From Saprospiraceae bacterium (GTDB lineage: Bacteria; Bacteroidota; Bacteroidia; Chitinophagales; Saprospiraceae): DNA of 64,000 nucleotides. The stretch spans positions 1-64,000 of the forward strand of contig JALHQW010000007.1 of assembly GCA_022841745.1 (NCBI GenBank). Direction: 5' to 3'. A model generated the notes under the pieces. It was given only the letters and a program-made list of their open reading frames with translations, had not been told where the DNA came from and searched no databases. Both the position numbers and the translations under genes were made by a program. This document shows, piece after piece, positions 14,801 through 54,160 of the stretch. The first letter of the stretch is position 1. The number at the start of each line of letters is the position of its first letter.

Positions 14801-14843
14801 CGATGGACGGTGGACGATAGACGGTGGACAGTGGACGGTGGAC
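14801..14843 (+). repeat. Heptamer array (CGGTGGA)n
   Basis: About six degenerate 7-bp units (CGGTGGA with CGATGGA, CGATAGA and CAGTGGA variants) lie just upstream of the serine hydrolase promoter. The inverted partner is at 14945-14993. Confidence 0.85.
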
Positions 14844-14944
14844 TGTTTCCATGCCCCTTTTTGTCTTCCCCTTAGGGAACTGCCACGCCACGAGGGTAAA
14901 AGGTGAACAAGTTGCGCTTAAGAGTTAGTGATAGAAAATGAGCT

Positions 14945-14993
14945 TCCACCGTCCATCGTCCACCGTCCACCGTCCACCGTCCACCGTCTATCG
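14945..14993 (-). repeat. Heptamer array, inverted partner
   Basis: About seven units of TCCACCG (variants TCCATCG and TCTATCG), the reverse complement of the array at 14801-14843. It ends inside the last codons and stop of the glycosyltransferase gene (stop at 14988). With its partner it could form a long stem around about 100 bp. Confidence 0.85.
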
Positions 14994-16586
14994 TTTTAAA
15001 ACGAAAACACTATCAACGCCAGGAGGCAGCCAACGGGTGTATGGGAAGCTGGACATTTTTTTGTAGCCATCCATATTGCCGAAGGTCACTACGTATTCGT
15101 CATCCACGACCCACCAGTCGCTTTTGGGGCCGTTCTGTTCTTTTTGCTGTGTGGGGCGGTACCAACCATTGAACTCGAAGCCGCCGTCAATGCGGTCGGG
15201 GGTGATGTTTTTTTCTTTGGTCAAAAAATCGAGAGCCTGCCAGCGGGCACGGTTCCAAGCCAAGTAGTCGTGGGTGGCAGTGATGGAGAAAATGGCCATC
15301 AGCAACAGGGCAGCAGTGGCAGCCCACCTTGTTTTTGGACTGGGATTTTGTTGCCCTTCGGGCAATAGCAAGGGCAGCAAGAACGGCAACAGCACGATGA
15401 AATAGCGGTCGAAGCAATGCACGTCGAGCATCAAAAAGCCGCCGTAAAGCAAGGCGCAAGTGCTGGAGAAAATGGCGATGGATCGGTTCGCCCCGCCATT
15501 GATCAAACGTTGTTTCGCATTTTTCATCAAAAGGAAGACAGCTGCCATTGCACCGCACAACCCAATAAAAATCAATATGTTGACAACCCATTTGGGAGCT
15601 ACCGGCTGCATGTTGATAAAAAAGTAGCCATCCTTTAGGAGCTTGGGGCCAAGGCCGAGGTTGTAGAGTATATTGGCCCACGGCAGGCGGGGCCAAGCCA
15701 GTACGCCCATTGCGGCAGCAGCCAATACGCCAAGCAAGGCTGGCCAGTTATTCTTAACAGAAAACCCGTTGCGGAGCGATGGAAAAAACAAAACTGCGAA
15801 GGGCAACAAGAACCCACCAAGATAAACGCTGATAACACCCAACCGCAGGGGGATTTGTGACCAGAAGCCTTTGCCCATTTGCCTCAGCAACCGCTGAAAA
15901 CTGCCGTAACCTTCTGGCAGCCCTTGCGAAGCAGCGAGCCAGTTTGAATACCAAGCAAACATCGCCACGATGACGGCAAGTGGCCCAAATGCAGTGAGCA
16001 AGTATTTTGGCCGCAAACCATACCTACATAAATAGGCAACTGCAAATGCCACGGGCAACAACAAGCCCAACTGTCGCACGAAGACCGACACCATTGCGAA
16101 GCAACTGCCCAGCAGCATCCATTTCAAATCTTCCTCTTTGAAAAAACGGACGTAGAACAAGACCGAAAGCAGACTGAAGGCAAAATAAGGAACGTCGGTC
16201 ATGTAGGTAAACGAGAGCGAAAAAAACAGGGGGTTGAAGGCGAGCATAGCCGCCAGCAGGAACGCCACCTGCCTGCCCTGCCCAAGATCCCTAACCAATT
16301 GATAACCAGCGATTACGCTCACCCAGCCAAGCACGAGCGTGGAGTATCGAAGCACCGTGAAAGAGAACCCGAACAGTTTGCAGAAGGCAGTGCCCCACAG
16401 CACTTGCGCCAGCAGGGTCATGGAAAGCCAAGGGTCATATCGAAGGATGCCCGCTTCGCTGAGGTTCATGGTGGAGCGGGCATAGGAGAAGTCGTCGTTG
16501 AGCGGGAAATCGCCAATGGGATTGACGAAAAGGATGGCGAGCAGCCAACTGGCTGTCAGCAATCCGATATATGACCAGTCTTTCAT
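14988..16586 (-). CDS. GT-C (GT39-like) membrane glycosyltransferase
   Basis: 532 residues with about ten or more membrane helices. The first periplasmic loop carries an acidic pair (FPLNDDFSYARS) at the place where ArnT/PMT-type enzymes hold their catalytic Asp. Known relatives transfer sugars from polyprenyl-phosphate donors to lipids or proteins on the outer face of the inner membrane. The C-terminal soluble part (residues about 440-532) is short. Neither acceptor nor donor can be read from the neighbours. The next gene upstream (SLC45-like carrier) is 46 bp away on the same strand, so they may be cotranscribed. Confidence 0.75.
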   Translation of the reverse strand: MKDWSYIGLLTASWLLAILFVNPIGDFPLNDDFSYARSTMNLSEAGILRYDPWLSMTLLAQVLWGTAFCKLFGFSFTVLRYSTLVLGWVSVIAGYQLVRDLGQGRQVAFLLAAMLAFNPLFFSLSFTYMTDVPYFAFSLLSVLFYVRFFKEEDLKWMLLGSCFAMVSVFVRQLGLLLPVAFAVAYLCRYGLRPKYLLTAFGPLAVIVAMFAWYSNWLAASQGLPEGYGSFQRLLRQMGKGFWSQIPLRLGVISVYLGGFLLPFAVLFFPSLRNGFSVKNNWPALLGVLAAAAMGVLAWPRLPWANILYNLGLGPKLLKDGYFFINMQPVAPKWVVNILIFIGLCGAMAAVFLLMKNAKQRLINGGANRSIAIFSSTCALLYGGFLMLDVHCFDRYFIVLLPFLLPLLLPEGQQNPSPKTRWAATAALLLMAIFSITATHDYLAWNRARWQALDFLTKEKNITPDRIDGGFEFNGWYRPTQQKEQNGPKSDWWVVDDEYVVTFGNMDGYKKMSSFPYTRWLPPGVDSVFVLKR

Positions 16587-16632
16587 CCCAATTTACTTGC
16601 GTGAATCTTCGATTTCCCAATTTCTCAATTTC

Positions 16633-17973
16633 CTAATGCCCACCTCCTTGCATGGTCACCTCACCGCCCAGGTTCCGTTTTTCCTGAATCCGCAGGGTCA
16701 TTACAGCGGCAATGAGCAACAGCACCCCGGCAAAGGTGACCGCATTTCGGGGGTCGTTGCCAAGGAAATGCTCCAAGATATAGCCAAAGGTCAGTGTCTG
16801 AATCAGCATGGGCACTACAATCATCATGTTGATGATGCCCATGTAAACGCCGTATCGTTCCTTGGGAATACCGCCCACGACCATCAGGTAAGGGATGCCC
16901 ATCATGCTCGCCCAGCCGATACCGAAGCCTGAAATAGCCACGAAAAGCAAGTATTTGTTGCCGATATGAGGGAATGCAAGGAACCCAATGCCAGCCAGTA
17001 CGAGGCAGAAGAAATGGACGTGCTTCGCAAAATACTTTCTGGCCAACCAAGCCAGGAAGAACGCCGTCAGGAAGGTGACAATATTGTACCAGCCGTTCAC
17101 GAGGCCCGTCCAACTGACGGCTTCTTCGTACAGCTTTGGGTCGCTCTGGGGGGTGGCGTTCCAGACCGACAAGGCCACGCTTTTCGATGAATTCTGCCAG
17201 TAGCAAAACAGCGCATACCATTGAAAAAGATAGACCAAGGCCAATTGCCACATCACCTTCGGCATGGCACGGATAGCGGCGGGCACTTCCTTGAACGGAA
17301 GCAAGAGGCCAAACGGCTCCTTGCGCAATTCCTTTAGTTCTTCCTCAGTTGGCGGTATTTCAGGGGTTGCCTTCATGCTCCACCAAACCGTAGCGATGGA
17401 GCAAACCGCACCGAGGAAAAATGAACCATATACCCAAGTTGGTAGTGAGCCGGTCCTGCCCACCAACAAGAGCGGAAAGATGAAAAGAGAGACGTTGGCG
17501 AGGGTCTGGCCCAAGCCCGTGAAGAAACTTTGAGCTTGAAACCCCAACCCTTTTTGCTCGTCCACCAGCTTGTCGGCGATAAAGGCACGGTAAGGCTCCA
17601 TGGCCGTGTTGTTGCCTGCATCCAAAATCCAAAGAAGGCCTGCGGCCATCCACAATGTACTGCTGAACGGGAAAAGGAATAGGCAAATACTGCACATGAT
17701 GGCACCAACCAAGAAATAAGGCTTGCGCCGTCCCCATTTTGGGCTCCAGGTCTTGTCGCTGAGTGCTCCAATGATGGGCTGCACCAACAGACCAGTCATA
17801 GGGCCAGCGAGGTTGAGGATGGGGATTTCATCGGGTGAGGCACCAAGCATGTCGTAAATGGGTGTAACGGCACTTTGTTGGAGGCCGAAACTGTACTGGA
17901 TTCCGAAGAACCCAACGTTCATGTTGATGATTTGCGAAAAGCTGAGCGGTACTTTTTTGATTCGGTCAAGCAT
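16633..17973 (-). CDS. SLC45/GPH-like MFS sugar transporter
   Basis: 446 residues from ATG 17973 ([19 protein letters not shown]), with 12 predicted membrane helices. Family marks include the [18 protein letters not shown] loop after helix 2-3, which is the GRRRPF-type motif of the sucrose/maltose SLC45-GPH group, and [15 protein letters not shown] near helix 10. Relatives move disaccharides with protons or Na+ across the inner membrane. It is about 2 kb from the HTCS gene of the fructan locus and could import sucrose or short fructans, but it is on the other strand and separated by unrelated genes. I rejected the upstream start at 18048 because it adds an atypical polar tail. Confidence 0.8.
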
Positions 17974-18350
17974 AGGTGTTGGTTTTGTATTGGCCGCCAA
18001 AATAGTCCAAAATTTGATGTATTCGATTGTTTCCAAATTTCTACCCAATGCATGGGTGTATCACCCTTAAAATTGGGTGTTTCAAGGTTAGTCTTAAAAT
18101 TTTCTTAAAAAAATTAGGAAGTTATTGTCAAAAGAACGTTTATTTGCTCCACAGAATAAAGAATCTGAGGAATGGCTTTGGAAGCGGAATGATTCTTCAA
18201 AATCCAGCAAAATACTTTGTTTTTATTTCGAGATTGACCTAGCATGTTTTTCAGTCTCAGGGTTAAATGGTTTAAGAATAAATGGTAGTACAATCTTTTT
18301 TACTGTGGGGGCCACTCTGGCCTTCATAATAACAGTCGGGTGATTTCTTA

Positions 18351-18387
18351 CAAGAGCGAGGCACGATGTGTCGTCGCTCTTTTTTAT
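18351..18387 (+). terminator. Rho-independent terminator-like hairpin
   Basis: AAGAGCGA and TCGCTCTT form the stem and are followed by a T-rich run. No confident gene ends just upstream on this strand, so it marks the end of a small or noncoding transcript. Confidence 0.6.
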
Positions 18388-18392
18388 TCTTC

Positions 18393-18400
18393 TACCTTTG
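18393..18400 (+). promoter_or_regulatory. -7 box (TACCTTTG) for the lolD-like gene
   Basis: Exact TAnnTTTG match about 88 bp upstream of the ATP-binding protein. The leader would contain the REP-like palindrome at 18448-18475. Confidence 0.45.
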
Positions 18401-18447
18401 CATGGGTTAGAGAAAGTGAATTAAGGTACTCGTTGCCGCAATCCGCA

Positions 18448-18475
18448 TTTGTCATTCCCGAAGGGAACCTAATCC
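18448..18475 (+). repeat. REP-like palindrome, copy 1
   Basis: TTTGTCATTCCCGAAGGGAA followed by CCTAATCC. The core TTCCCG-A-AGGGAA is palindromic. Other copies are at 19895-19925, 36698-36725 and 38835-38866. Confidence 0.75.
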
Positions 18476-18487
18476 GCAATCCGCAGC

Positions 18488-19141
18488 ATGATTCAAGCCA
18501 CAAACATCCATAAATCCTACGGCGACCTGCGGGTGCTCAAGGGGGTTGACATCCAAATACAAACCGGAGAAATTGTCAGCATTGTCGGAAAGTCAGGTGC
18601 CGGTAAAAGCACCTTGCTCCACATCCTTGGCACCCTCGACAAGGCCGACAAGGGCGAGGTCATTTTCGACGGCGTTAATGTCAATTCGCTGAATGTCAAT
18701 GATTTGGCGAAATTCAGGAACACACATATCGGTTTCGTGTTCCAGTTCCACCACCTGTTGCCGGAGTTCACGGCGGTGGAAAACGTCTGCATCCCGGCCT
18801 TCATCAAAGGCACCCCCGAAGCCCAAGCCCAGGCCCGTGCCAAGGAACTGCTCGACTACCTCGGCCTATCCGCCCGCCTCTCCCACAAGCCCACGCAACT
18901 ATCCGGTGGAGAGCAACAGCGGGTGGCCGTGGCCCGTGCCCTGATGAACCAGCCCGCCGTCATTTTTGCCGACGAGCCTACCGGCAACCTCGACACGGCT
19001 TCCTCGCAAGAGCTTCACCAACTTATTTTCCAGCTTCGCAAAGACCTGAACCAGACCTTCCTCATCGTCACCCACAACATGGAACTGGCTGCCATGAGTG
19101 ACCGGACTGTGGAAATGCAGGACGGTTTGTTGAAGGTATGA
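18488..19141 (+). CDS. lolD: LolD-like ABC transporter ATP-binding protein
   Basis: 217 residues with all ABC ATPase motifs: Walker [10 protein letters not shown] (34-42), Q-loop [12 protein letters not shown], signature LSGGEQQR (138-145), Walker B VIFADEP and the switch His in VTHN. The [13 protein letters not shown] stretch is typical of the LolD/MacB subgroup, which powers lipoprotein release or efflux through an FtsX/LolCE-type permease. No permease gene is adjacent, which is common for Bacteroidota lolD. The stop codon lies inside the first unit of a heptamer array that pairs with another at the end of the convergent ung gene. Confidence 0.85.
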
Positions 19142-19170
19142 AGGTATTGAGGTATGAAGGTATGAGGTAT
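19132..19170 (+). repeat. Heptamer array (AGGTATG)n
   Basis: Units of AGGTATG spaced by 7-9 bp start inside the final codons of the lolD-like gene and include its stop codon. The array pairs with 19183-19211. Confidence 0.85.
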
Positions 19171-19182
19171 GTCTTCGCCAAG

Positions 19183-19211
19183 CATACCTCCATACCTCAT
19201 ACCTCATACCT
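19183..19211 (-). repeat. Heptamer array, inverted partner; convergent terminator
   Basis: CATACCT units run up to the base next to the ung stop codon (19212-19214). With 19132-19170 it forms a hairpin that exactly fills the gap between two convergent stop codons, so a termination role is plausible. Confidence 0.85.
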
Positions 19212-19880
19212 CTACAAGCACCACTGTATCGCCATCTTCCCGTTGTTTTCCAAAAACTCGTTGGCCTTGCTGAAATGCTGGCAGCCGCCGAAGGCACCAC
19301 CTGCGAGGGGGGAAGGGTGCGCTGCTTCGAGCACGAGGTGCTTGAAGGGGTCAATCAGGGCGGCTTTTTGCTTCGCAAAATTGCCCCAGAGCATGAAGAC
19401 GAGGCCGTCACGTTTGTCGGAAAGGGTCTTGATGACAGCGTCGGTGAAATTATGCCAACCTATTTTGGCGTGGGAGTTGGAATTGCCTTTTTCAACCGTG
19501 AGCGCAGCATTGAGGAGGAAGACGCCTTGCGCTGCCCAAGCAGTCAGGTCGCCATGATTGGGTGGGGCACAACCAAGGTCTTCTTCGAGTTCCTTGTAAA
19601 TATTGCGCAGCGATGGTGGAATGGCCACGCCTTTGGGCACCGAAAACGACAGGCCCATTGCCTCGCCGGGTTTTATATAGGGGTCTTGCCCCAAGATGAC
19701 GACCTTCACCTCGTCGAATGGCGTAGTGTTGAAAGCATTGAAAATCAGCGGCCCAGGCGGGTAAATCGCCTTACCTGCCGTAATTTCCCTTTTTAAAAAA
19801 GCGGTGATCGCCTGAAAATAGGGCTGCTCAAACTCCCCGGCCAATGCTGCCTTCCAGCTTTCTTCGATTTTGACGCTCAT
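19212..19880 (-). CDS. ung: Uracil-DNA glycosylase, family 1
   Basis: 222 residues, normal length. It removes uracil from DNA as the first step of base excision repair. The water-activating Asp is D66 in GQDPY, the uracil-binding Asn is in LIFNAF, and the His of the minor-groove loop is H188 in HPSPL. After GQDPY the sequence is IKPGEAMGLSFSVP, whereas most enzymes have His directly after PY; this may be a subfamily trait. It is convergent with lolD. A REP-like palindrome lies 15 bp upstream of the start codon. Confidence 0.93.
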   Translation of the reverse strand: MSVKIEESWKAALAGEFEQPYFQAITAFLKREITAGKAIYPPGPLIFNAFNTTPFDEVKVVILGQDPYIKPGEAMGLSFSVPKGVAIPPSLRNIYKELEEDLGCAPPNHGDLTAWAAQGVFLLNAALTVEKGNSNSHAKIGWHNFTDAVIKTLSDKRDGLVFMLWGNFAKQKAALIDPFKHLVLEAAHPSPLAGGAFGGCQHFSKANEFLENNGKMAIQWCL

Positions 19881-19894
19881 CTGTTAAGGATTGA

Positions 19895-28081: not shown

Positions 28082-28134
28082 AAAATTTGAAGGTGATTGT
28101 TGCCTTTGAAATGGATGAACGAAATGAGCCAACA

Positions 28135-28217
28135 GCAGTCACATGAGAGGAGGGGTTATCAAACCCCGGAGTTCGGAACTGAGGGGTTTGATAACCCCTC
28201 CTCTCGAAAGTGACTGC
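28135..28217 (+). promoter_or_regulatory. Long perfect hairpin after the GH32 gene
   Basis: A 23-bp arm at 28145-28167 pairs without mismatch with 28183-28205. The loop contains a further small stem (AGTTC/GAACT), and outside it GCAGTCAC (28135-28142) pairs with GTGACTGC (28210-28217). There is no T run. It lies 55 bp after the GH32 stop, 340 bp before susC, and could attenuate or stabilise the mRNA. Confidence 0.8.
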
Positions 28218-28257
28218 GGTTAAATTCAAATGTGTTCATTTATTGAGCAACACTTGA

Positions 28258-31833: not shown

Positions 31834-31882
31834 ACCTCACCCCCGGCCCCTCTCCTCGCAGGAGAGGGGTCGGGGGTGAGGT
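31834..31882 (+). promoter_or_regulatory. 22-bp hairpin between susC and susD
   Basis: The arm at 31834-31855 pairs with 31861-31882 with one G-T mismatch around a 5-nt loop (TCGCA). It ends 13 nt before the susD ATG. It could lower or separate SusD expression from SusC, or act as an RNA processing site. This CCTCACCCCC palindrome type recurs in Bacteroidota genomes as I recall. Confidence 0.75.
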
Positions 31883-31895
31883 AAAAACAATAAAA

Positions 31896-36728: not shown

Positions 36729-38552
36729 TTACTTCCGCTTCAACCACCTCTTCCAACTCAGCGCCTCCACAATCTGCCCCCAGCCCATGTCCCGCATGGC
36801 CCAATAGGTGAGCGCAAGGCCCATCGGGAACACCACGATGCAATTCATCCAGGCGGCAGCTACGGCGTCTATGACGAAGCGCTCGGCGATGTTCTTGCTA
36901 AAAATGCTGATGACGATGAAGAGCATGAAGAACACGATGCTGATGAGCAGCGGCCAACCGAAACCACCCTTGCGCACAATGGCACCCATGGGGGCACCCA
37001 CAAACAGGAAGATAACGCAGGCCATTGCCAAACTGAACTTGGAATGGAACTCAAAGACGTGCTTCACCTTCGACTCCTTGGTCTTTTGCAGTGAGCGGAG
37101 GGTCGTCTCGGCTTGGTCTTGAATAACGCTCATGGGGTTGCGGGCTTTTTCCAGCAGCTCGCTGCGCTTTTGGCGCTCGAAGGTTTCGAGCATGGAGCTG
37201 TATTGCTCAATGGGCTTTTCCAACACCTGCTTGTAACCAATGGTTGCCGGATTTTTCAAGGGCACCTTTTTTTTGCCAGTCGTGTCTTGCTTGGCAGCTG
37301 GCAGGTTGCGGGGGGTAATAATGGGCTTTTGGCGGGGCAACGTCTTGGGTGGTTGGACGGGCGGTTGCTGGCCCTTTAGCCTTGCGAGGGCCGCAGAGTC
37401 CTGTGAGGTTGGGGCTGTCTGGGAAGGTTTGGGAACAGGTTTTGAGGCAGTTGAGTCTGGGGGGGTAGTCAACTGCTCGGCGTTCTTTCTTGCCAGGTAC
37501 TCGTTGTCCTTGGCGGTTGCACCGATTTCCTTCAGGGCTTTCTGGAGGACAGCAGAGTCGGGGTTTGCCTTGATAATGGAATCCATTTTGGCTCGTTTCT
37601 CCTCCGCCTCTTGCTCATGCTTTTCCTTGGTGCGTTCCAAATGCAGTTTGTTGAGGAAGTAAAAATGGCGGTTGTTGCCCTCGGCCATGCGACCTGCCCT
37701 CTCCACGATTTCCTGGTCAATGGAGTCAATGGCAACCAACAGTTGGCGGTTGGAGAGCATGGTGTGGTGTGATTTGAAGAGGTTTTCGTCCGTACGGTCA
37801 AGCTCGAACTGGTCGAGGTCAAACACTTTTGTCCACGATTGGAAGGTTGAGCGCATCATGGGGTAGTTGCGCCTGCCCGACTTGGTGATGGGTTTTGGCT
37901 CCGCAATCTGCTGGCCCTCAAACAGTTGCATCACAAAGTACTTATTGTCCTCTGAGCCAAACATCTGCCCGCTGTCGGCGGCGACCATGCTCAGGCGGCC
38001 TTGAGAAGCTTCTCCATTGTCGTAAACCAGCACACTTCGAATAGTGCTGTTGTCTGGCAATTTATCACCAATGCGAATGCTGAAGCCTTGAAAATCGGTG
38101 TTGAACAAGCTCTCCTCCAAACTCAGGGCGGGCTTCTGCTGCCGGATGTCGTAGAGCCGGCTCTTGAACTTCAAGTTGGAGACCGGTATGAAATAATTGG
38201 AACAAAAAAACGAAAGCACTGCCACGCCTCCCGTGAAAACCATCAATGGCATCATCGTGCGCCAAAGCGAGACGCCCGCCGATTTGATGCTCGACAGTTC
38301 ATAGCGTTCCGCCAAATTGCCCAGCACCATCACCGACGAAATCAGTACCGCCACGGGCAACGACATCGGTATCATGCTCACCGAAAGGTAACCAACCAAC
38401 TCCGTCAGCAGGAAGAAGCCGACGCCCTTGCCCGCTATCTCGTCTATGTACAGCCACAGCGTCTGCATCACAAACACGAAGAGTGCGATGAAGAACGTCA
38501 CCACAAATGGCCCCACGAACGAGGTGATAAGGAGTTTATCGAGTTTTTTCAT
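36729..38552 (-). CDS. LptF/LptG family permease with a long insert
   Basis: 607 residues, much longer than the usual 350-390. The N-terminal helices (residues about 10-120) and C-terminal helices (about 500-590) fit the YjgP/YjgQ fold, which drives lipopolysaccharide export from the inner membrane with LptB. The periplasmic part is extended by roughly 200 residues, including Lys/Glu-rich coiled coil (about 275-345) and a Pro/Thr-rich low-complexity stretch (about 360-430). Only one paralogue is seen here. A heptamer array directly abuts the start codon, and a REP-like palindrome follows the stop. Confidence 0.85.
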   Translation of the reverse strand: MKKLDKLLITSFVGPFVVTFFIALFVFVMQTLWLYIDEIAGKGVGFFLLTELVGYLSVSMIPMSLPVAVLISSVMVLGNLAERYELSSIKSAGVSLWRTMMPLMVFTGGVAVLSFFCSNYFIPVSNLKFKSRLYDIRQQKPALSLEESLFNTDFQGFSIRIGDKLPDNSTIRSVLVYDNGEASQGRLSMVAADSGQMFGSEDNKYFVMQLFEGQQIAEPKPITKSGRRNYPMMRSTFQSWTKVFDLDQFELDRTDENLFKSHHTMLSNRQLLVAIDSIDQEIVERAGRMAEGNNRHFYFLNKLHLERTKEKHEQEAEEKRAKMDSIIKANPDSAVLQKALKEIGATAKDNEYLARKNAEQLTTPPDSTASKPVPKPSQTAPTSQDSAALARLKGQQPPVQPPKTLPRQKPIITPRNLPAAKQDTTGKKKVPLKNPATIGYKQVLEKPIEQYSSMLETFERQKRSELLEKARNPMSVIQDQAETTLRSLQKTKESKVKHVFEFHSKFSLAMACVIFLFVGAPMGAIVRKGGFGWPLLISIVFFMLFIVISIFSKNIAERFVIDAVAAAWMNCIVVFPMGLALTYWAMRDMGWGQIVEALSWKRWLKRK

Positions 38553-38556
38553 TCAA

Positions 38557-38588
38557 ACGGTGGACGGTGGACGGTGGACGATGGACGG
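38557..38588 (+). repeat. Heptamer array (CGGTGGA)n at the LptF/G start
   Basis: Four CGGTGGA/CGATGGA units lie 4 bp upstream of the start codon of the minus-strand permease gene. A shorter inverted partner with TCCACCG, TCTATCG, TCTATCG is at 38647-38669. Confidence 0.85.
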
Positions 38589-38646
38589 CAAGCGGTGAAA
38601 AAGATGATTCGTTTATCCGTACACCGTTGGCCTTGGCCAGTTGACC

Positions 38647-38669
38647 GTCCACCGTCTATCGTCTATCGT
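38647..38669 (-). repeat. Heptamer array, inverted partner
   Basis: GTCCACC and two GTCTATC units mirror 38557-38588. Together they frame about 60 bp between the permease start and the YihY promoter. Confidence 0.8.
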
Positions 38670-38765: not shown

Positions 38766-38798
38766 TTGGATGCAAACAACCAACCCGTATTAACTTTG
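38766..38798 (+). promoter_or_regulatory. Promoter of the yihY-like gene
   Basis: TTG at 38766 and TAACTTTG at 38791-38798, 22 bp apart, fit the -33/-7 pattern of Bacteroidota. Transcription would begin near 38805, which excludes TTG 38766 as the start codon. Confidence 0.6.
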
Positions 38799-38834
38799 CG
38801 GGGTCATTTCGACAGGGACGACCTTCAATCCTTT

Positions 38835-38866
38835 TTTGTCATTCCCGTAGGGAACCTAATTTCAAT
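38835..38866 (+). repeat. REP-like palindrome, copy 4, in the yihY leader
   Basis: TTTGTCATTCCCGTAGGGAA then CCTAATTTC. If the mRNA starts near 38805, the palindrome forms a hairpin in the 5' leader just before the probable start codon at 38874. Confidence 0.7.
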
Positions 38867-38873
38867 CCTTATT

Positions 38874-39830
38874 TTGCGTTTTCCGACCTATCAACAAATT
38901 GTAGAAGCCATCGAGCGACACCCTTGGGTGCAGCAGCTGCTGAATTGGTCGAAGACGCACTCCTTACCGGGTTTCTTTGGGGTGCCCGCCTATGATGTGG
39001 CCGTTTTCGTTTATGAAGAATCCCTTAAAAACACACTTTTTGCTAGGGCAAATTCAATGGCCTTCAGTTTTTTCCTATCCTTGTTCCCGGCCATTATCTT
39101 CCTGTTCACGGTGGCTACTTACCTGCCCATTTATTCCAGTTTCGAGCATGAAATCAACGGGTACATTAACCTCATCATGCCCAACGATGCGGGAAAAGAA
39201 TTGCAGGCCACCATCAAGGAGTTGGTGAAACCAAGTTCCCGGTTCTTGTCACTCGGTTTTTTCCTGGCCATATACTTTTCCTCCAATGGCATGATGGCCA
39301 TGATGCAGGGTTTTGAAAAATCACACGTTCGGGTATTCAACCAGCGACCAGCCTGGAAAAAACGGCTCGTCGCCATTGGCCTTACCATGCAATTGGGCTT
39401 GTTGCTGGCAGGCTCCGTGGTGCTCATCATCCTCGGCGACCTGTTGCTCAACTGGCTGGTGGACATTTTCCACATTGACATCGTGACCGAAACGGCCATC
39501 GAGGTTTTCCGTTGGATTGTCATCCTTTGCATGTTCTATTTTGGCATTGCCCTCATTTACCGTTACGGCACTTCGCTCAAACGAAAATTTAAATGGATAA
39601 CGCCCGGTGCCACGCTGGCTACCATTCTTTCTATTCTCACTTCTGTTGGCTTCTCCTTTTATGTCAACTCCTTTAACACCTACAACAAGGTCTATGGCTC
39701 CATTGGAACCATCATCGTGCTCATGCTTTGGATTCAATTGAACTGCCTCATCCTGCAAATCGGCTTCGAGTTGAACGCCAGCATCGCCGCCAACCGACAC
39801 ATCAGGACGGAGGTGCAGGAGGAAGCGTGA
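38874..39830 (+). CDS. YihY/RbN-like membrane protein
   Basis: About 318 residues from TTG 38874 (MRFPTYQQIVEAIERHPW). The frame is open further up to 38766, but that segment spans a promoter and a REP-like palindrome. Six membrane helices and the family pattern are clear: LARANSMAFSFFLSLFPAIIFLF, SNGMMAMMQGFEKSH, and GASYALLFG-like TYNKVYGSIGTIIVLMLWIQL. It was once called ribonuclease BN by mistake; the true role is unknown, perhaps transport. It is convergent with the 7TM gene, separated by paired heptamer arrays. Confidence 0.8.
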   Translation: MRFPTYQQIVEAIERHPWVQQLLNWSKTHSLPGFFGVPAYDVAVFVYEESLKNTLFARANSMAFSFFLSLFPAIIFLFTVATYLPIYSSFEHEINGYINLIMPNDAGKELQATIKELVKPSSRFLSLGFFLAIYFSSNGMMAMMQGFEKSHVRVFNQRPAWKKRLVAIGLTMQLGLLLAGSVVLIILGDLLLNWLVDIFHIDIVTETAIEVFRWIVILCMFYFGIALIYRYGTSLKRKFKWITPGATLATILSILTSVGFSFYVNSFNTYNKVYGSIGTIIVLMLWIQLNCLILQIGFELNASIAANRHIRTEVQEEA

Positions 39831-39972: not shown

Positions 39973-40006
39973 CCAATCCGCAATCCGCAATCCGAATTCC
40001 GCAATC
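39973..40006 (-). repeat. Heptamer array, inverted partner
   Basis: AATCCGC units run into the stop codon of the convergent 7TM gene (40005-40007). The pair brackets the junction of two convergent genes. Confidence 0.85.
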
Positions 40007-40697
40007 AAACAATCGGTTTTTCCAGCATTTTTTTGCTTCCCAAATAGAAATACCAACAGGCCACCCCCATTAGTACGTGCGCCATGTCCATGTGGTTGAA
40101 ATAGATGCTGATGGCCCAGATATTTACGAAGAAAACCGCACCAATCGTAGCCCATAGCACGCCCACCAAGAAGAGACGGCTGCCCTCGTGCCTCGTTTTC
40201 AAATAAACATAACCATGAAACCCACCCGTCACGATGAGGATGCCATAGGCGGCATGGCTCATGACATATAAAAAGTTCATTGTAACCACTGAGATGATGA
40301 GGAAGAAAGCCAGTTCCAGCATGTTCAGCACGGCGAAGAACTTGGCTAACTTGGGTCGTATGAGGGGAAATGCATGAAAAATAGCGGCCCGTTCCAGAAA
40401 CGCCACAGAGAACATGGAGACGTACCAGCCCGGTATTTTCCAATGAATCGTAAGCGCATAGTTGAAGCTATGCCCGATGAGACCGCCGAGCAGCGTGGCC
40501 ATGCCCATGGTGAGGAAATAGCCCCGTGCCAGCCAGTGAATGCTGCCTTTTCGCTCCGGCTTTCCAAGTTTGTAAAAAGCGTACCAGCAGATGACCGTCA
40601 CCAGCACATCGGTGAGCATGGTGATGGGTTCGTCCACCCGTAGGCCGAAAGGATAGACAGCGGGGTTGTTGAAATAGGAATTTATGGGAGGGTTCAT
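40005..40697 (-). CDS. Seven-helix membrane protein, unknown
   Basis: 230 residues with about seven membrane helices and His/Trp-rich loops (GLIGHSFNYALTIHWKIPGW, HAAYGILIVTGGFHGYVY, NHMDMAHVLMG). The spread of His residues in the membrane resembles ceramidase or hemolysin-III type seven-helix hydrolases, but the order of motifs does not match well enough to name it. It occurs alone, with a putative promoter overlapping an imperfect palindrome at 40698-40740. Confidence 0.65.
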   Translation of the reverse strand: MNPPINSYFNNPAVYPFGLRVDEPITMLTDVLVTVICWYAFYKLGKPERKGSIHWLARGYFLTMGMATLLGGLIGHSFNYALTIHWKIPGWYVSMFSVAFLERAAIFHAFPLIRPKLAKFFAVLNMLELAFFLIISVVTMNFLYVMSHAAYGILIVTGGFHGYVYLKTRHEGSRLFLVGVLWATIGAVFFVNIWAISIYFNHMDMAHVLMGVACWYFYLGSKKMLEKPIV

Positions 40698-49738: not shown

Positions 49739-50728
49739 ATGAAATACTTCCTCACAGGCGGAACTGGGTTTGTCGGCGGCTATTTGGCCAAATTATTAAG
49801 GAAAGAAGGCCACGAAGTCGTTGCACTGGTAAGAAATCCCAACGCAGCCAATGATTTGGCTGCCATCGGATGTACCTTGGTCAAAGGCGATGTAACAGAA
49901 AAGGAAAGCATGAGGGCTGACATGACAGGTTGCGACGGTGTTTTCCATGTAGCGGGTTGGTACAAGGTAGGCACAAGAACCCGCAAGCAAAGGAAGGAAG
50001 GCACCCGAATCAACATAGACGGAACCCGCAATGTGCTGGAACTCATGCGGGACCTTGGCATCAAAAAAGGCGTCTATACCAGTACCCTTGCCGTCAACTC
50101 CGATACCAAGGGCGAACAGGTGGATGAGAACTACCATTTCGAAGGAAAGCACATCAGCCACTACGACCACACCAAGGCGGAGGCCCATAAGATTGCGCTC
50201 GATTTTATCAAAAAAGGATTGCCGCTCGTCGTGGTCATGCCCGGCCTCATCTATGGCCCCGGTGATACGAGCAGCGTCCGCACCACTTTGATTCAGTACC
50301 TGAAAGGAAAGTTGCCCATACTTCCCCGCAAAACGGCCTATAGTTGGGCGCATGTCGAGGATATTGCGCAAGCACACTATGACGCCATGCTAAAGGGCAA
50401 AACTGGCGAAAAATACATTATCGCTGGCCCAACCCACTCTATTCTTGATGCTATTGGTATAGCGCACCGCATCACAGGCAAGCGCCAGCCTCGTGCCGTA
50501 AATCCCGGCGTGATGAGGTTTATGTCCTATTTTATGTCGTTGTTCGATTGGCTGCTACCCATCCCTGCCGACTATACCTCCGAGAACCTACGGATATTGT
50601 CCGGAGCAACTTATATCGGGGCCAACACCAAAGCCAAAGAAGAATTGGGCTATGACCCAAGGTCATTGAAAGAGGGCTTATCCACCACCTTATGGCATGA
50701 AATGCGGTTGCTGGGAATGGTTAAATAG
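49739..50728 (+). CDS. NAD-dependent epimerase/dehydratase (extended SDR)
   Basis: 329 residues from ATG 49739. The Rossmann motif is TGGTGFVGGYLAKLL and the catalytic pair is YDHTK (Tyr and Lys). The remaining marks HVAGWYKVG, INIDGTRNVLEL and YGPGDTSSV fit the dihydroflavonol reductase/NAD-dependent epimerase branch. Substrates in this branch range from nucleotide sugars to hopanoid or flavonol intermediates and cannot be read here. The stop codon overlaps the first AGGTATG heptamer of a hairpin array. Confidence 0.85.
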   Translation: MKYFLTGGTGFVGGYLAKLLRKEGHEVVALVRNPNAANDLAAIGCTLVKGDVTEKESMRADMTGCDGVFHVAGWYKVGTRTRKQRKEGTRINIDGTRNVLELMRDLGIKKGVYTSTLAVNSDTKGEQVDENYHFEGKHISHYDHTKAEAHKIALDFIKKGLPLVVVMPGLIYGPGDTSSVRTTLIQYLKGKLPILPRKTAYSWAHVEDIAQAHYDAMLKGKTGEKYIIAGPTHSILDAIGIAHRITGKRQPRAVNPGVMRFMSYFMSLFDWLLPIPADYTSENLRILSGATYIGANTKAKEELGYDPRSLKEGLSTTLWHEMRLLGMVK

Positions 50729-50756
50729 GTATGGAGGTATGAGGTATGGAGGTATG
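50727..50756 (+). repeat. Heptamer array (AGGTATG)n
   Basis: Four units start in the stop codon of the epimerase gene. The same unit as at 19132-19170, but at an unrelated locus. Its partner is 50763-50793. Confidence 0.88.
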
Positions 50757-50762
50757 TGAGGC

Positions 50763-50793
50763 CATACCTCCATACCTCATACCTCCATACCTC
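50763..50793 (-). repeat. Heptamer array, inverted partner; convergent hairpin
   Basis: CATACCT units reach into the stop codon of the DUF3299-like gene (50792-50794). With its partner it forms a near-perfect stem of about 30 bp with a 6-nt loop. Confidence 0.88.
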
Positions 50794-51232
50794 AAATCGG
50801 TTCCGCTTCCAAAAGCACGTAGGTCATCTGATTTAAATTGCTCTTGTTCATTTGCAGGATGCCCTTGAAGGTCATGCGGTCGTCGAGTTTGTAGCGTCTG
50901 AGTGCGGATGGTTTGAGCCTTAGTTCAATCACCGTTTCAGGGCCAGCGCCGCCGCAAAAAAAGCAGGTGGCATTGGGGTTTCTTGAAAGCACGTAGGTGA
51001 CGCCCATCCCATCCAAGGGGATGATATAGCCGGAGATTTTTACTTCTTTTCCATTGAATGGCAGGAGCCATCGGCCAAAGGTCGCTTCATCGTAGTTCAG
51101 ACCGGTTTCCTCTGAAAATTTTTGGGTGAATCTCACGTCGGCAAGGGTCGTCCAGTCAATTTGCGTCTGGCCATAGGCCGACTGGAGCGAGGCGAAGAGG
51201 GCAAGGAGTAATGGGATCAGGTTATTTTTCAC
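50792..51232 (-). CDS. Secreted DUF3299-like protein
   Basis: 146 residues with a signal peptide (ALFASLQSAYGQ). The mature part has the DUF3299 pattern: KEVKISGYIIPLDG, an FFCGGAG Cys pair around residue 93 (CFFCGG), and RMTFKGILQMN. Family members are periplasmic and of unknown function; the Cys pair and the neighbouring His-poor sequence hint at metal binding or a redox role, but this is a guess. It is convergent with the epimerase through the hairpin array. Confidence 0.65.
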   Translation of the reverse strand: MKNNLIPLLLALFASLQSAYGQTQIDWTTLADVRFTQKFSEETGLNYDEATFGRWLLPFNGKEVKISGYIIPLDGMGVTYVLSRNPNATCFFCGGAGPETVIELRLKPSALRRYKLDDRMTFKGILQMNKSNLNQMTYVLLEAEPI

Positions 51233-51252
51233 AGCTTGATTTAGTTCGCAAC

Positions 51253-51309
51253 TGGTGATTGGTGATTAGCAGGGCTACGCCGTTCACCAATCACCAATCA
51301 CGAATCACT
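51253..51309 (+). repeat. Heptamer pair (GGTGATT)n / (AATCACC)n
   Basis: Two GGTGATT units at 51253-51268 face three AATCACC/AATCACG units at 51285-51309, which run into the stop codon of the aminotransferase (51308-51310). It separates that gene from the start of the DUF3299-like gene. Confidence 0.8.
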
Positions 51310-52516
51310 ATTTCAATTTCACCACTGCTTCCGCAATGCGGCCAATGGCCTTGCGCAGCGACTCCTCGCTGGCAGCATAGGAGATGCGAAAGCAATCCGG
51401 CGCACCGAACGAGTCGCCACCGACCACGCCAACATGGGCATTCAACAGCAGGAACTCACAGAAATCATCGGCGGTATGGATGGTCACGTTTCCGTCCGAT
51501 TTGCCGAAGTAATGACTGATGTCGGGGAAAACATAGAACGCACCTTCCGGCTTATTGACGATAAAACCGGGGATTTTCTCCAAAAGCTCAATCACGATAT
51601 TGCGGCGTTGCAGGAACTCATCCCGCATTTTATAAGTCGGCGTCATATCAGCTTCGAGGGCGTAGGCTGCGGCCTTTTGGCTAAACGCATTTGCCCCGCT
51701 GGTAAACTGCCCTTGGATTTTTGCGCAAGCAGCCGCCAAATAGGCTGGGCCGCCCATGTAGCCGAGGCGCCAGCCCGTCATGGCATAGCCTTTTGCAAAG
51801 CCGTTCACGGTCACGGTGCGGTTTTTTACGCTTGCCACTGCGCCAATGCTGGCATGTTTGCCCGTGAAGTTGATATACTCATATATTTCATCGGAAATGA
51901 TGACGATTTGCTCATGTGGTGCAATGACCTCGGCGATGGCCTCCAATTCTTCCTTGCTGTAAACGGAGCCAGTCGGGTTGCATGGCGAGCTGAAGAGCAC
52001 AATCTTCGTTTTATCAGTGATGGCAGCAGCCACCTGTTCGGCGCTCACCTTGAAATCGTCTTCAATGCCAGCACCCACTTCCACAGGCACAGCTTGGCAC
52101 ATACGCACGATTTCAGCGTAGCTGACCCAATAGGGCGCAAAAATGATGGCCTCGTCGCCGGGGTCGAGGATGGCAAGGCAGAGGTTGGCGATGGTCTGCT
52201 TGGCCCCGTTGGAAACCACGATTTGGTTCAAGGCGAACTCCAGCCCATTGTCCCGCTTGAACTTGTTGATGATGGCTTGGCGCAATTCCACAAGGCCCGG
52301 CACAGGAGTGTATTTGGTAAACCCAGCATCGAGCGCCTGCTTTGCAGCTTCCTTTATATGGGCAGGCGTATCGAAATCGGGTTCGCCAAGGCTTAGGTCT
52401 ATCACATCGTGGCCTTTTGCCTTGAGGTCACGGGCCATCTGTGCCATCTTGATGGTGGCGCTTTCGTTCATTTCCAAAACCAAACGGGAAAGCGGTTGCG
52501 CTGCTACTGCTGACAT
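51308..52516 (-). CDS. Aspartate/aromatic aminotransferase, class I
   Basis: 402 residues, a fold-type I PLP enzyme. The lysine that binds PLP is in NGFAKGYAMTGWRLGY. Other contacts are SNGAKQTIANL near residue 105, SPCNPTGSVY and ISDEIYEYI (Asp and Tyr at the cofactor ring), and the substrate Arg in FRISYAAS. The pattern matches AspC-type enzymes of the I-gamma subgroup, which interconvert aspartate and oxaloacetate and can accept aromatic substrates. It is flanked downstream by heptamer repeats that abut its stop. Confidence 0.9.
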   Translation of the reverse strand: MSAVAAQPLSRLVLEMNESATIKMAQMARDLKAKGHDVIDLSLGEPDFDTPAHIKEAAKQALDAGFTKYTPVPGLVELRQAIINKFKRDNGLEFALNQIVVSNGAKQTIANLCLAILDPGDEAIIFAPYWVSYAEIVRMCQAVPVEVGAGIEDDFKVSAEQVAAAITDKTKIVLFSSPCNPTGSVYSKEELEAIAEVIAPHEQIVIISDEIYEYINFTGKHASIGAVASVKNRTVTVNGFAKGYAMTGWRLGYMGGPAYLAAACAKIQGQFTSGANAFSQKAAAYALEADMTPTYKMRDEFLQRRNIVIELLEKIPGFIVNKPEGAFYVFPDISHYFGKSDGNVTIHTADDFCEFLLLNAHVGVVGGDSFGAPDCFRISYAASEESLRKAIGRIAEAVVKLK

Positions 52517-52587
52517 GCTGCTATTCTGTTTTTAAATGTGATGGTTGATTAACTTGGTGCTTAACGGCAGGGCGGGTATTTCGGTTG

Positions 52588-52595
52588 CAAAGATA
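52588..52595 (-). promoter_or_regulatory. -7 box (TATCTTTG) of the aminotransferase gene
   Basis: Exact TAnnTTTG match on the minus strand, 72 bp upstream of the start codon at 52516, next to a GGTGATT heptamer pair. No -33 box at normal spacing was found. Confidence 0.4.
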
Positions 52596-52636
52596 GGCAA
52601 TTGGTGATTCGTGATAAGGGGCGTTAAGAAAAAATC

Positions 52637-52767
52637 CTGACGCAGTTTTTTTGACGCAGAAAGATGCAGATGATTATGATTTTTTATGTTTTTCAGGTTT
52701 TTGCTACGCAAAAACAAAGCATAATCAATCATAAAAAATCATAAAAACCTGCGTCGAAAAATTTTCT
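52637..52767 (+). repeat. Inverted GACGCAG repeat, copy 2
   Basis: TTTGACGCAGAAAGATGCAG at the left and AAAAACCTGCGTCGAAAAA at the right are inverted arms around an AT-rich centre with ATGATTTTTTATG and its mirror. Related to 33654-33758. Confidence 0.7.
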
Positions 52768-53008
52768 TAACATCCCTAATTCGTGATTGGTGATTCGTGA
52801 TGGGGCTGGCAAGAAAAAATTGACGGTGGTTTTTTGAAGCAGCTCCAAAGGAGTCCCTATGGGAAAAGACGCAGATTCTTTATGATTTATTATGAAAATG
52901 CTGCCTTTAGCAGCCTAAACGGCTACGAGAAATAACACTTCAGGAAAATTTCCTTAACAACCCTGCCTCGTCATTTGTGATTATTGAATCCAATTTAACA
53001 GCCGAATT

Positions 53009-53046
53009 ACCAATCACGAATAACGAGTCACGAATCACCAATCACT
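53009..53046 (-). repeat. Heptamer array (AATCACG/AATCACC)
   Basis: About five units of period 7 end in the stop codon (53045-53047) of the nucleoside phosphorylase gene. The inverted partners GGTGATT are at 52600-52617 and 52779-52802. Confidence 0.8.
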
Positions 53047-53911
53047 AAAACTGTCCCAGCACCTCCGCTATCACCTTCTCCTCCACCTTCTTTGGGTCTT
53101 TTGAAAACTCGCCCGTGACTCGGTTGGCGATGATGGCATTGCAGGCCGTGGCTTGGTGGCCGAGCATCCTTGAAAGCCCTAGTATGGCCGATGTTTCCAT
53201 TTCAAAATTGGTGACGTGAAGTCCCTCAAAACTGAATTGGGGGATTGCTTCGAAAAAGCTGCGTTCAATGGTGCTGCCCAATCGGAGCCGCCTTCCTTGA
53301 GGCGCATAGAACCCAGGACAAGTAAGCGTAATGCCCTTTTTCATCACCCGTTCAAACCGCCTGACCAAGCCGTGGTCAGCCTCGGCAGCAATGGGGCTTA
53401 TATTGGTTCCGATACCTGCGGCAAAGGAGGTGAATGCCTGCCGCAAGTACTCCTCACGAGGGCTGGCAGGATAGTCGTAATAATGCAAGAGGTTATCCAA
53501 GCCCATGCCGAATGCCGACACCACCAAGCTGTCAGGTGGGATTTCAGATGATAGGCTGCCGCTCGTCCCGATGCGCACGATTTTGAGGGATGTGAGCGTA
53601 TCCTTCACCGTGCGGGATGGCAGGTCTATGTTCACAAGGGCATCCAGCTCGTTTACAACGATGTCAATATTGTCCGTACCGATGCCCGTGGAGAGTACGG
53701 TAAGCCGCTTACCGCCAAGTTCGCCCGTATGGGTCACGAACTCCCGCTTTTGCACCTTGTGGTCAATGCGGTCGAAATGCTGGGAAACCTTGGGCACCCG
53801 GTCGGGATCGCCCACGAAGAAAATGGTTTCGGCAATTTGCTCAGGCAACAGGTTCAGGTGATAAATGCTGCCACTGGGGTTGATGATGAGTTCGGATGCT
53901 GGGAATTTCAT
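53045..53911 (-). CDS. Nucleoside (uridine) phosphorylase
   Basis: 288 residues from ATG 53911, of the PNP/UDP family. Marks include the nucleobase and phosphate loops FFVGDPDRVPKVSQHF and STGIGTDN, IGTSGSLS (phosphate binding) and FEMETSAILGLSRML (ribose and base contacts with Glu-Met-Glu). It splits nucleosides with phosphate to a free base and ribose 1-phosphate, in salvage. The GDPxRV and GIGTDN forms favour uridine phosphorylase over adenosine types. Codons upstream of 53911 in the same frame translate the heptamer array and are non-coding. Confidence 0.85.
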   Translation of the reverse strand: MKFPASELIINPSGSIYHLNLLPEQIAETIFFVGDPDRVPKVSQHFDRIDHKVQKREFVTHTGELGGKRLTVLSTGIGTDNIDIVVNELDALVNIDLPSRTVKDTLTSLKIVRIGTSGSLSSEIPPDSLVVSAFGMGLDNLLHYYDYPASPREEYLRQAFTSFAAGIGTNISPIAAEADHGLVRRFERVMKKGITLTCPGFYAPQGRRLRLGSTIERSFFEAIPQFSFEGLHVTNFEMETSAILGLSRMLGHQATACNAIIANRVTGEFSKDPKKVEEKVIAEVLGQF

Positions 53912-53959
53912 GATGCTGGATGCTGGATGCTGGATGCTGGATGCTGGATGCTGGATGCT
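53911..53959 (+). repeat. Heptamer array (GATGCTG)n touching a start codon
   Basis: Seven units run from the start codon of the phosphorylase gene outward (minus-strand unit CATCCAG). The divergent ArsC-like gene has the same array against its own ATG (54129-54160). Confidence 0.9.
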
Positions 53960-53985
53960 CGTGCCCTTTACCAAATATCGTGCGG

Positions 53986-53993
53986 CAAAGGTA
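53986..53993 (-). promoter_or_regulatory. -7 box (TACCTTTG) of the phosphorylase gene
   Basis: TACCTTTG on the minus strand, with TTG about 17 bp upstream near 54012. The mRNA would start near 53979 and its leader would consist mainly of the heptamer array. Confidence 0.55.
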
Positions 53994-54128
53994 GCACCCC
54001 GTTGGCTTTTCAATAAGCCGAATATAATCTTGAACCGAATACCCCAAAGGTTGTTTATTCCAAGCGTTTTCAAGAATCAATTCAAACCTATTTTTGCCAT
54101 TAAATACACCTACTGTAAATGCTCGGCG

Positions 54129-54160
54129 CCATCCAGCATCCAGTATCCAGCATCCAGCAT
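54129..54160 (+). repeat. Heptamer array (CATCCAG)n touching a start codon
   Basis: Four units (one TATCCAG) end as CATCCAGC-ATG at the ArsC-like start codon. It mirrors 53911-53959. Confidence 0.9.

What the first reader, a model, noticed from the sequence alone, without database searches (positions are those of the whole stretch)
14801..54160. Locus-specific heptamer arrays in inverted pairs, fitted to gene ends
At least eight sites have short tandem 7-bp repeats: CGGTGGA (14801/14945 and 38557/38647), AGGTATG (19132/19183 and 50727/50763), ATTGCGG (39831/39973), GGTGATT (51253/51285 and 52600-53046), CATCCAG (53911/54129). The unit differs between sites, but each has an inverted partner nearby and most begin or end inside, or within a few bases of, a stop or start codon. 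One process seems to create them. I know of short tandem heptamers (STRR) in cyanobacteria, but this paired, codon-abutting layout is not something I recognise.
Basis: seen in the sequence. Interest (0 to 1): 0.8.

Follow-up and report, generated by a model that had tools for sequence, protein, structure and literature searches.

The report
Paired heptamer hairpins at gene ends
In a bacterium related to Saprospiraceae, many gaps between genes hold mirror-image pairs of short 7-base repeats fitted tightly against stop and start codons, and at several of the same gaps sister species have a mirror-image pair built from a different repeat.

Summary
All eight window sites hold period-7/8 arrays in inverted pairs; 12 of 16 outer edges overlap or lie within 5 nt of a start or stop codon. 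In 1.65 Mb of this genome (20%) I found 191 arrays, 0 in a shuffle; 154 are intergenic, 58/154 within 5 nt of a gene end (random 26.7), 89/154 with an inverted partner (permuted 7.1).

Beyond the finding: (1) the sense strand is G-rich after stops (68:8), C-rich before starts (30:1) and C-rich inside genes (26:5); (2) arms are often four-unit modules, and identical 30-34-nt arms recur at 10-15 places; (3) where both species have detected arrays at an orthologous gap, the unit differs in 6 of 6.

Best reading: renewable hairpins at transcript boundaries, rewritten in both arms by template switching or ectopic copying, with selection setting edges and strand. Function is inferred; my terminator test was weak, and the convergent-gap excess was not seen in two sister genomes. 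Closest known: GGGAATC heptamers of Xanthomonas (PMC4692102), with the same strand placement and inverted pairs. Many units, unit replacement and independence from GG differ.

The parts
14800..14843 (+). S1 left arm, G-strand unit ACGGTGG (variants ACGATGG, ACGATAG, ACAGTGG)
   Evidence: TRF; sequence
14945..14988 (-). S1 right arm, inverted ACGGTGG; runs into the TAG stop (14990-14988) of gene 14988-16586(-), which continues the array as variant unit ACGATAG
19131..19171 (+). S2 left arm, AGGTATG; contains the last codons and the TGA of ABC transporter gene 18488-19141(+)
19183..19212 (-). S2 right arm, inverted AGGTATG, abuts the stop of uracil-DNA glycosylase-like gene 19212-19880(-)
38557..38588 (+). 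S3 left arm ACGGTGG, 4 nt from the start of gene 36729-38552(-)
38644..38669 (-). S3 right arm, inverted; not at a codon
39834..39924 (+). S4 left arm, GGATTGC family, two 45-nt blocks, starts 4 nt after the end of 38766-39830(+)
39974..40006 (-). S4 right arm, inverted, reaches the stop of 40005-40697(-)
50727..50756 (+). S5 left arm, 30-nt four-unit AGGTATG module, begins inside the TAG stop of epimerase-family gene 49739-50728(+)
50763..50792 (-). S5 right arm, exact inverted copy, begins inside the stop of 50792-51232(-); 6-nt loop
   Evidence: (RNA MFE -61.4 kcal/mol, z -10.95)
51253..51267 (+). S6 left arm GTGATTS
51284..51308 (-). S6 right arm, inverted, begins inside the stop of aminotransferase gene 51308-52471(-)
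52599..52615 (+). S7 left fragment, GGTGATTCGTGAT (end coordinates approximate)
52779..52801 (+). S7 inner copy, period-7 ATTCGTG array
53003..53045 (-). S7 right arm, inverted GTGATTS, at the stop of phosphorylase-family gene 53045-53911(-)
53912..53959 (+). S8 left arm GGATGCT (TRF 6.9 units), directly before the start of 53045-53911(-): on that gene's sense strand it is a C-rich leader
54130..54160 (-). S8 right arm, inverted; its last AT is part of the ATG of ArsC-family gene 54159-54515(+)

Best explanation
Each pair is a renewable hairpin that occupies the gap between two genes. Shown in this genome: arms are period-7/8 arrays, most often of 4-5 units. Near gene ends the G-rich strand reads away from the gene, so RNA is G-rich just after a stop and C-rich just before a start. 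Paired arms share a unit. Identical four-unit arms occur at many loci with different loops. At several orthologous gaps sister species have a pair of another unit. Inferred mechanism: (a) slippage lengthens arrays; (b) template switching between arms, plus ectopic copying from other arrays of the same genome, overwrites both arms, so a species' current unit 'dialect' spreads; (c) copying is stopped only by selection, so arm edges pile up at the last dispensable base: the stop codon on one side, a short A-rich stretch before ATG on the other; (d) only the orientation that makes G-rich RNA at transcript ends, not in leaders or coding sequence, is tolerated. Inferred role: a two-way boundary, a strong RNA hairpin at the 3' ends of convergent and tandem genes that helps to end transcription or protect the 3' end. 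Between divergent genes the arms would be tolerated leader sequence with no RNA hairpin role.
For: Arrays and partners far above controls. Strand rule at stops 68:8 against 298:263 in gaps without arrays (Fisher p 1.6e-10); at starts 30:1 against 538:173 (p 0.004). Rule holds for arrays without a 7-nt partner (32:4) and for arrays with no stop triplet on either strand (29:2). Inside genes 26 of 31 arrays are C-rich on the sense strand; coding baseline 4253 G>C to 4395 C>G windows. In the 24 gaps with exactly two arrays the order is G then C in 21, C-C in 2, C then G in 1. Sister genome G008: 15 of 15 gene-end arrays G-first, partner 10/18 against 1.6 permuted, near a gene end 10/18 against 4.2. 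Stop-side edges peak 1-2 nt inside the stop codon (24 of 59 edges at 9 nt or less) and start-side edges 4-9 nt before ATG (17 of 23). G000 gaps of 60 nt or more with arrays: convergent 27/114, tandem 76/525, divergent 10/173. Orthologous gaps: end-to-end inverted repeat z>=3 in 14/21 when G000 has an array, 4/16 when not (p 0.02); G000 arms closer to each other than to the orthologous gap in 15/21 against 2/16 (p 0.0007); 6 of 6 gaps with arrays detected in both species use different unit classes. Gap length is not increased (median ratio 1.18 against 1.17), which fits replacement better than insertion. The same 34-nt arm has 16 hits at 10 places in G000 and 1 in G006; the 30-nt AGGTATG arm (one position A or G) 18 hits at 15 places in G000, 2 in G011, 1 in G012; the loops printed differ. 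RNA folds z -7.3 to -11 at S2, S3, S5, S6. Template switching that makes and maintains hairpins is described (PMC8794818, abstract). In Xanthomonas transcripts start or stop more often at G4-forming heptamer repeats than at control repeats (PMC4692102 section 15).
Against: The terminator role is not shown: canonical terminators are only weakly rarer in convergent gaps with arrays (6/50 against 38/166, p 0.11) and not rarer in tandem gaps (8/68 against 49/432). The excess in convergent gaps is not seen in the sister genomes (G008: convergent 1/33, tandem 12/151, divergent 1/54; G004: 0/31, 5/154, 2/43). Divergent pairs cannot form an RNA hairpin if transcription starts between the arms. In 19 of 25 orthologous gaps where G000 has an array no array was detected in the sister species, so persistence rests on the weaker inverted-repeat score (7 of 21 fail it). 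At S2, G003, G005 and G010 have arrays with no partner in the stretch shown, and G002 and G007 none; at S8 in G001 the two arms have different units. Arms are not clearly closer to their partner than to same-family arms elsewhere: in six families, permutations reached the observed value in 23, 25, 68, 171, 500 and 500 of 500, which argues against purely local inverted copying. The strand rule fades more than 20 nt from gene ends (28 G-first, 19 C-first), and 8 stop-side and 1 start-side arrays break it. Stop triplets explain part of the bias inside genes: 14:5 among arrays whose other strand holds no stop triplet. The 4-5-unit peak is not seen among 18 arrays of G008. G004 has few arrays (9 in 0.45 Mb; near gene end 3/7 against 1.4, partner 3/7 against 0.8), so the system is dispensable. 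Orthologue comparisons reuse gaps (17 distinct gaps in 26 pairs) and dropped 5 of 26 and 15 of 31 pairs on length.
Confidence: 0.45

Rival explanations
1. A transposed element like a REPIN or MITE: the inverted pair is the mobile unit, moved by a transposase, and selection leaves copies mainly in gaps.
For: Discrete four-unit arms with fixed phase (25 AGGTATG arms: 16 with exactly four units, 21 with no partial unit at the inner end); identical arms at many loci; Y1_Tnp (IS200-type) domains in 12 of 14 genomes, most (9) in G000, the most array-rich of the three genomes I sampled. A MITE-like element with a core of about 127 bp near octamer arrays exists here.
Against: The loops printed differ, units are many (51 classes in 154 arrays), gaps are not longer than without arrays, and stop-side arms often leave no remnant between array and stop. 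G004 and G008 have 3 Y1_Tnp matches each with 20 and 62 arrays per Mb; array density was not measured in the other genomes, so the enzyme test is open.
Confidence: 0.22
2. Plain slippage microsatellites: arrays grow locally, selection removes most from genes, and hairpins arise because ancestral terminators were palindromes.
For: Period 7 is the most common short period in an initial 0.46 Mb (23 arrays; 11 for period 8); long expanded arrays and higher-order repeats exist; at the orthologous S6 gap G001 and G006 have terminator-like hairpins with A/T tracts.
Against: Identical 30-34-nt arms with the same internal order at unlinked places, peak at 4-5 units in G000 (86 of 154; short arrays are under-detected), and paired arrays of different units at orthologous gaps.
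Confidence: 0.18
3. G-quadruplex elements, as discussed for Xanthomonas: four G-tracts per arm form a quadruplex that acts on gene expression.
For: 82 of 107 gene-end arrays have GG in the G-strand unit; 4-5 units per arm is the peak in G000; four-unit preference and G4 folding in vitro are reported for GGGAATC (PMC4692102, abstract).
Against: Arrays with no GG follow the same strand rule (16:3 in G000, 5:0 in G008, 1:0 in G004) and AATGATG arrays also have four units (3 of 3).
Confidence: 0.15

Closest known systems
GGGAATC / GGGGA(C/T)T heptamer repeats of Xanthomonas and Nostoc (PMC4692102: abstract, passages, sections 10, 13-16 read)
   Same: Heptamers, mostly intergenic, few between divergent genes, G-rich strand sense after stops and antisense before starts, peak at four units, 70 and 75 inverted pairs in two Xanthomonas genomes, site mostly kept between close species while length and sequence vary.
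   Different: There one unit type with GGG (and few inverted pairs in Nostoc); here dozens of units, different units at orthologous gaps of sister species, edges often within 1-2 nt of stop codons, rule seen without GG, C-rich sense strand inside genes.
TAACTGA direct repeats of Beggiatoaceae, some cyanobacteria and Bacteroidetes (PMC4679880: abstract and passages)
   Same: Intergenic heptamers, many within a few nt of start codons.
   Different: One unit, direct repeats with a single inverted case in the main genome, mostly before starts.
STRR heptanucleotides of heterocystous cyanobacteria (recalled; only a search listing seen)
   Same: Tandem 7-mers (recalled).
   Different: Paired, codon-abutting layout not compared; no cyanobacterial sequence was reached here.
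REPINs (PMC3116915, abstract and passages)
   Same: Short dispersed inverted doublets with a spacer, extragenic, hairpin-forming.
   Different: REP halves are palindromic and tied to a RAYT gene; here arms are tandem heptamers, and units differ between sister species at one gap.

Membership tests
Heptameric intergenic repeats of the Xanthomonas GGGAATC type | Tandem heptamers, mostly intergenic | tested here: met
   154 of 191 intergenic in G000
Heptameric intergenic repeats of the Xanthomonas GGGAATC type | G-rich strand sense after stop, antisense before start | tested here: met
   68:8 and 30:1; G008 15 of 15
Heptameric intergenic repeats of the Xanthomonas GGGAATC type | Inverted pairs | tested here: met
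   89/154 against 7.1 permuted
Heptameric intergenic repeats of the Xanthomonas GGGAATC type | Preference for four units | tested here: inconclusive
   G000: 51 of 154 with four, 35 with five, 10 with three, short arrays under-detected; no such peak among 18 arrays of G008
Heptameric intergenic repeats of the Xanthomonas GGGAATC type | Unit GGGNATC with G3 tracts able to form a quadruplex | tested here: not met
   51 unit classes, 25 of 107 gene-end arrays without GG in the unit; folding into G4 not testable here
REPIN / REP | Inverted doublet able to form a hairpin in extragenic space | tested here: met
REPIN / REP | Each REP half is itself palindromic | tested here: inconclusive
   not tested arm by arm; arms after stops average G 40%, C 9% on the sense strand, which leaves little room for an internal stem
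REPIN / REP | RAYT transposase linked to the repeat family | tested here: inconclusive
   Y1_Tnp domain 0-9 matches per genome; neither linkage nor RAYT identity examined
Intrinsic terminators | GC-rich hairpin followed by a T-run | tested here: not met
   canonical form at 6/50 convergent and 8/68 tandem transcript ends in array gaps (my own simple scan)
Phase-variation repeats | Linked to surface or contingency genes | tested here: inconclusive
   only 10 flanking proteins scanned; 9 hit Pfam: ABC transporter, UDG, epimerase, aminotransferase, phosphorylase, ArsC, BrkB, DUF6962, PMT

The most novel reading that the evidence does not exclude
An undescribed copying process rewrites both arms of gap-filling palindromes at once: both gene-side 3' ends are extended with the same G-rich heptamer, primed by 1-2 nt of the stop codon, about four units at a time, then joined through a filler loop. 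It would work like telomere addition at a break, with the palindrome itself being the recurrent break site. This would explain the G-first order, the shared unit, the fixed outer phase, the four-unit peak, the differing loops and the species dialects together.
Probability: 0.15. Interest if true: 0.9.

Novelty: new variant of a known kind. Interest (0 to 1): 0.6.

Why it matters
It points to a non-coding feature whose paired layout can outlast its sequence: at several orthologous gaps both arms have changed unit together. That makes it a natural system for asking how hairpins are created and kept complementary. If arrays overwrite everything dispensable, their edges may mark, base by base, where functional sequence begins (the stop codon; a short A-rich stretch before ATG). 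The strand flip at the stop codon gives a testable hint that G-rich RNA arrays act as an end signal or are harmful inside messages.

Tried and rejected
Stop-codon supply as the whole cause of the strand rule: sense strands close one or more frames in 43 of 59 stop-side edge records, but arrays with no stop triplet on either strand still obey 29:2. Pure composition: no bias at stops in gaps without arrays (298:263); a milder C>G bias at starts (538:173) accounts for part of the start side. Pairing as the cause of the rule: arrays without a 7-nt partner obey it (32:4). Known RNA family: Rfam at gathering threshold finds only a tRNA in the window. RAYT link: Y1_Tnp counts taken but linkage not tested, so left open. 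Cyanobacterial comparison failed: accession not held and a repeat query gave nothing (the filter for simple sequence is on). Literature: ten searches in an open-licence library; the one naming Saprospiraceae with tandem repeats and intergenic gave 0 papers. The same analysis on 78 loci fetched (L139-L216; the script's label says 77; some may be of the same genus) gave 24 arrays, 17 intergenic, 9 G-first to 3 C-first, partner 9/17 against 0.7, but gene-end edges 5/17 against 2.4 (maximum 8 of 200 runs), not clearly above random.

Limits: genes were called by my own script, not an annotation; starts are less certain than stops, and the 31 arrays inside genes lie in 21 called genes. About 20% of the genome was read. 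Array detection needs exact 6-mers 7 or 8 nt apart, so old degenerate arrays are missed, visibly so in G004. The unit-order shuffle cuts blocks of 7 and is crude for 8-nt units. The bacterium itself is unnamed; Saprospiraceae is inferred from the nearest named records. The promoter motif at S8 is recalled, not tested.
Full report
WHAT WAS CHECKED. The window is contig C7:1-64000 of an 8.43-Mb, 178-contig genome (G000). The bacterium is unnamed; the nearest named records to a window protein are Bacteroidetes and Saprospiraceae metagenome assemblies. TRF and the raw sequence confirm the arrays of the finding. With my own gene calls, 12 of 16 outer arm edges at the eight sites overlap or lie within 5 nt of a start or stop codon.

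GENOME-WIDE TEST. I read 1,650,460 bases of the same genome (with the window). There are 191 period-7/8 arrays, none in one first-order shuffle. Of these, 154 are intergenic. Within 5 nt of a gene end: 58/154, random placement in the same gap 26.7 (sd 4.4, maximum 40 of 1000 runs). Inverted partner of 9 nt or more in the same gap: 89/154, permuted gaps 7.1 (maximum 14 of 200). Direct partner: 44/154 against 7.1 (maximum 15). The longest exact inverted repeat is 12 nt or more in 68/112 array gaps and 27/112 size-matched gaps. By gap type (60 nt or more): convergent 27/114, tandem 76/525, divergent 10/173.

STRAND RULE. For the 107 arrays within 20 nt of a gene end, the sense strand is G-rich after stops in 68 and C-rich in 8; before starts C-rich in 30 and G-rich in 1. 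Gaps without arrays show 298 G>C to 263 C>G at stops and 538 C>G to 173 G>C at starts. The rule holds without a partner (32:4) and without any stop triplet on either strand (29:2); the 47 arrays more than 20 nt from gene ends show 28:19 only. It does not need GG (16:3 without GG). Inside genes, 26 of 31 arrays at least 20 nt from the gene's ends are C-rich on the sense strand, against 4395 C>G and 4253 G>C among random coding windows; leaving out the 12 whose other strand holds a stop triplet, 14:5. So the sense strand tends to change from C-rich to G-rich at the stop codon.

EDGES. Stop-side edges peak at 1-2 nt inside the stop codon (24 of 59 edges at 9 nt or less), with a tail of arrays that reach further in and hold the stop. 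Start-side edges sit mostly 4-9 nt before ATG (17 of 23), often leaving an A-rich stretch. At the divergent site S8 the left arm lies between a GCAAAGGTA-like motif (a Bacteroidetes -7 box by recall, not tested) and the start codon in G000, G004 and G001; in G001 the two arms have different units.

MODULES. AGGTATG arms start and end in a nearly fixed phase: 16 of 25 have exactly four units and 21 of 25 have no partial unit at the inner end. Over all families 51 of 154 arrays have four units and 35 five; 18 arrays of G008 show no such peak. One 34-nt arm with its internal variant has 16 hits at 10 places in G000 and one in G006; the 30-nt AGGTATG arm 18 hits at 15 places in G000, two in G011 and one in G012. 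The loops printed differ. Unit dialects differ by species: AGGTATG 125 hits in G000 and at most 13 in any of 13 sister species; AGGGATG 457 in G003, 120 in G005 and 20 in G000; GGATTGC 66 in G000, 67 in G006 and 0 in six species. In G003 and G005 the backwards control of AGGGATG is common too (500 and 80), so those two counts are not specific.

ORTHOLOGOUS SITES. Downstream of gene 18488-19141, of 12 genomes shown: G000 has paired AGGTATG, G008 AGGGATG, G012 GGAAATT, G009 GAGAATT; G001, G013 and G004 short hairpins (AGGTATG-like in the first two); G003, G005 and G010 arrays without a partner in the stretch shown; G002 and G007 no clear array. Downstream of 51308-52471, G001 and G006 have terminator-like hairpins and G004 and G008 no array. 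Of 57 orthologous adjacent gene pairs in five sister genomes, 26 have an array in G000 (17 distinct gaps). Counting gaps of 45 nt or more in G000: array in both 6, G000 only 19, sister only 1, neither 25. Where both have detected arrays the unit class differs in 6 of 6. After length limits (21 and 16 pairs left), the orthologous gap is an end-to-end inverted repeat (z>=3) in 14/21 against 4/16, and G000 arms resemble each other more than the orthologous gap in 15/21 against 2/16. Gap length does not rise (1.18 against 1.17).

REPLICATION. G008: 27 arrays in 0.43 Mb, 18 intergenic, 15 of 15 at gene ends G-first, partner 10/18 against 1.6. G004: 9 arrays in 0.45 Mb, 5 of 6 G-first. Neither shows an excess in convergent gaps (1/33 and 0/31). 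Loci: 24 arrays in 0.52 Mb, 9 G-first to 3 C-first, partner 9/17 against 0.7, edges not clearly above random.

MECHANISM. Shown: layout, strand rule, module copies, and different units at orthologous gaps. Inferred: copying by template switching and ectopic conversion, and a boundary role. Template switching is known to create and keep hairpins (PMC8794818, abstract). Against a purely local copy, arms are hardly closer to their partner than to same-family arms elsewhere. The terminator test was weak (6/50 against 38/166, p 0.11; no difference in tandem gaps). RNA folds are strong at S2, S3, S5 and S6 (z -7.3 to -11); S4 was folded without its right arm and shows nothing (z 0.57). S1, S7 and S8 were not folded.

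KNOWN OR NEW. The Xanthomonas GGGAATC repeats have the same strand placement, inverted pairs and four-unit preference (PMC4692102). I therefore call this a new variant of a known kind. What I did not see in the papers read in part or in the ten searches is many units obeying one rule, different units in both arms at orthologous sites, and the flip inside coding sequence.

Noticed in passing
G000 gaps, e.g. C2:66816-67462, C3:172358-172844, C4:114138-114400 (loci L019-L048): A dispersed core of about 127 bp shared by eight array-bearing gaps, several with GTTTTCGG/GTTTTAGG octamer arrays: MITE-like, distinct from the heptamer pairs.
   Followed up: partly
window 52618-52780: A dispersed repeat of about 160 bp inside site S7, 94-95% identical to two places in sister genome G011.
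   Followed up: no
window 28095-28243: A dispersed repeat of about 150 bp with many copies in sister genome G006 and several in G011, on both strands.
   Followed up: no
window 31834-31887: A short gap sequence repeated at 88-100% identity in G001, G008 and G011, on both strands.
   Followed up: no
G000 C1:152067-163964 and others: In-frame heptamer arrays inside called genes encode 7-residue repeats such as NPQSAIR.
   Followed up: partly
L169:4165-4311 and L168:919-1155: Gaps with long mirror-image heptamer arms in other named assemblies.
   Followed up: no
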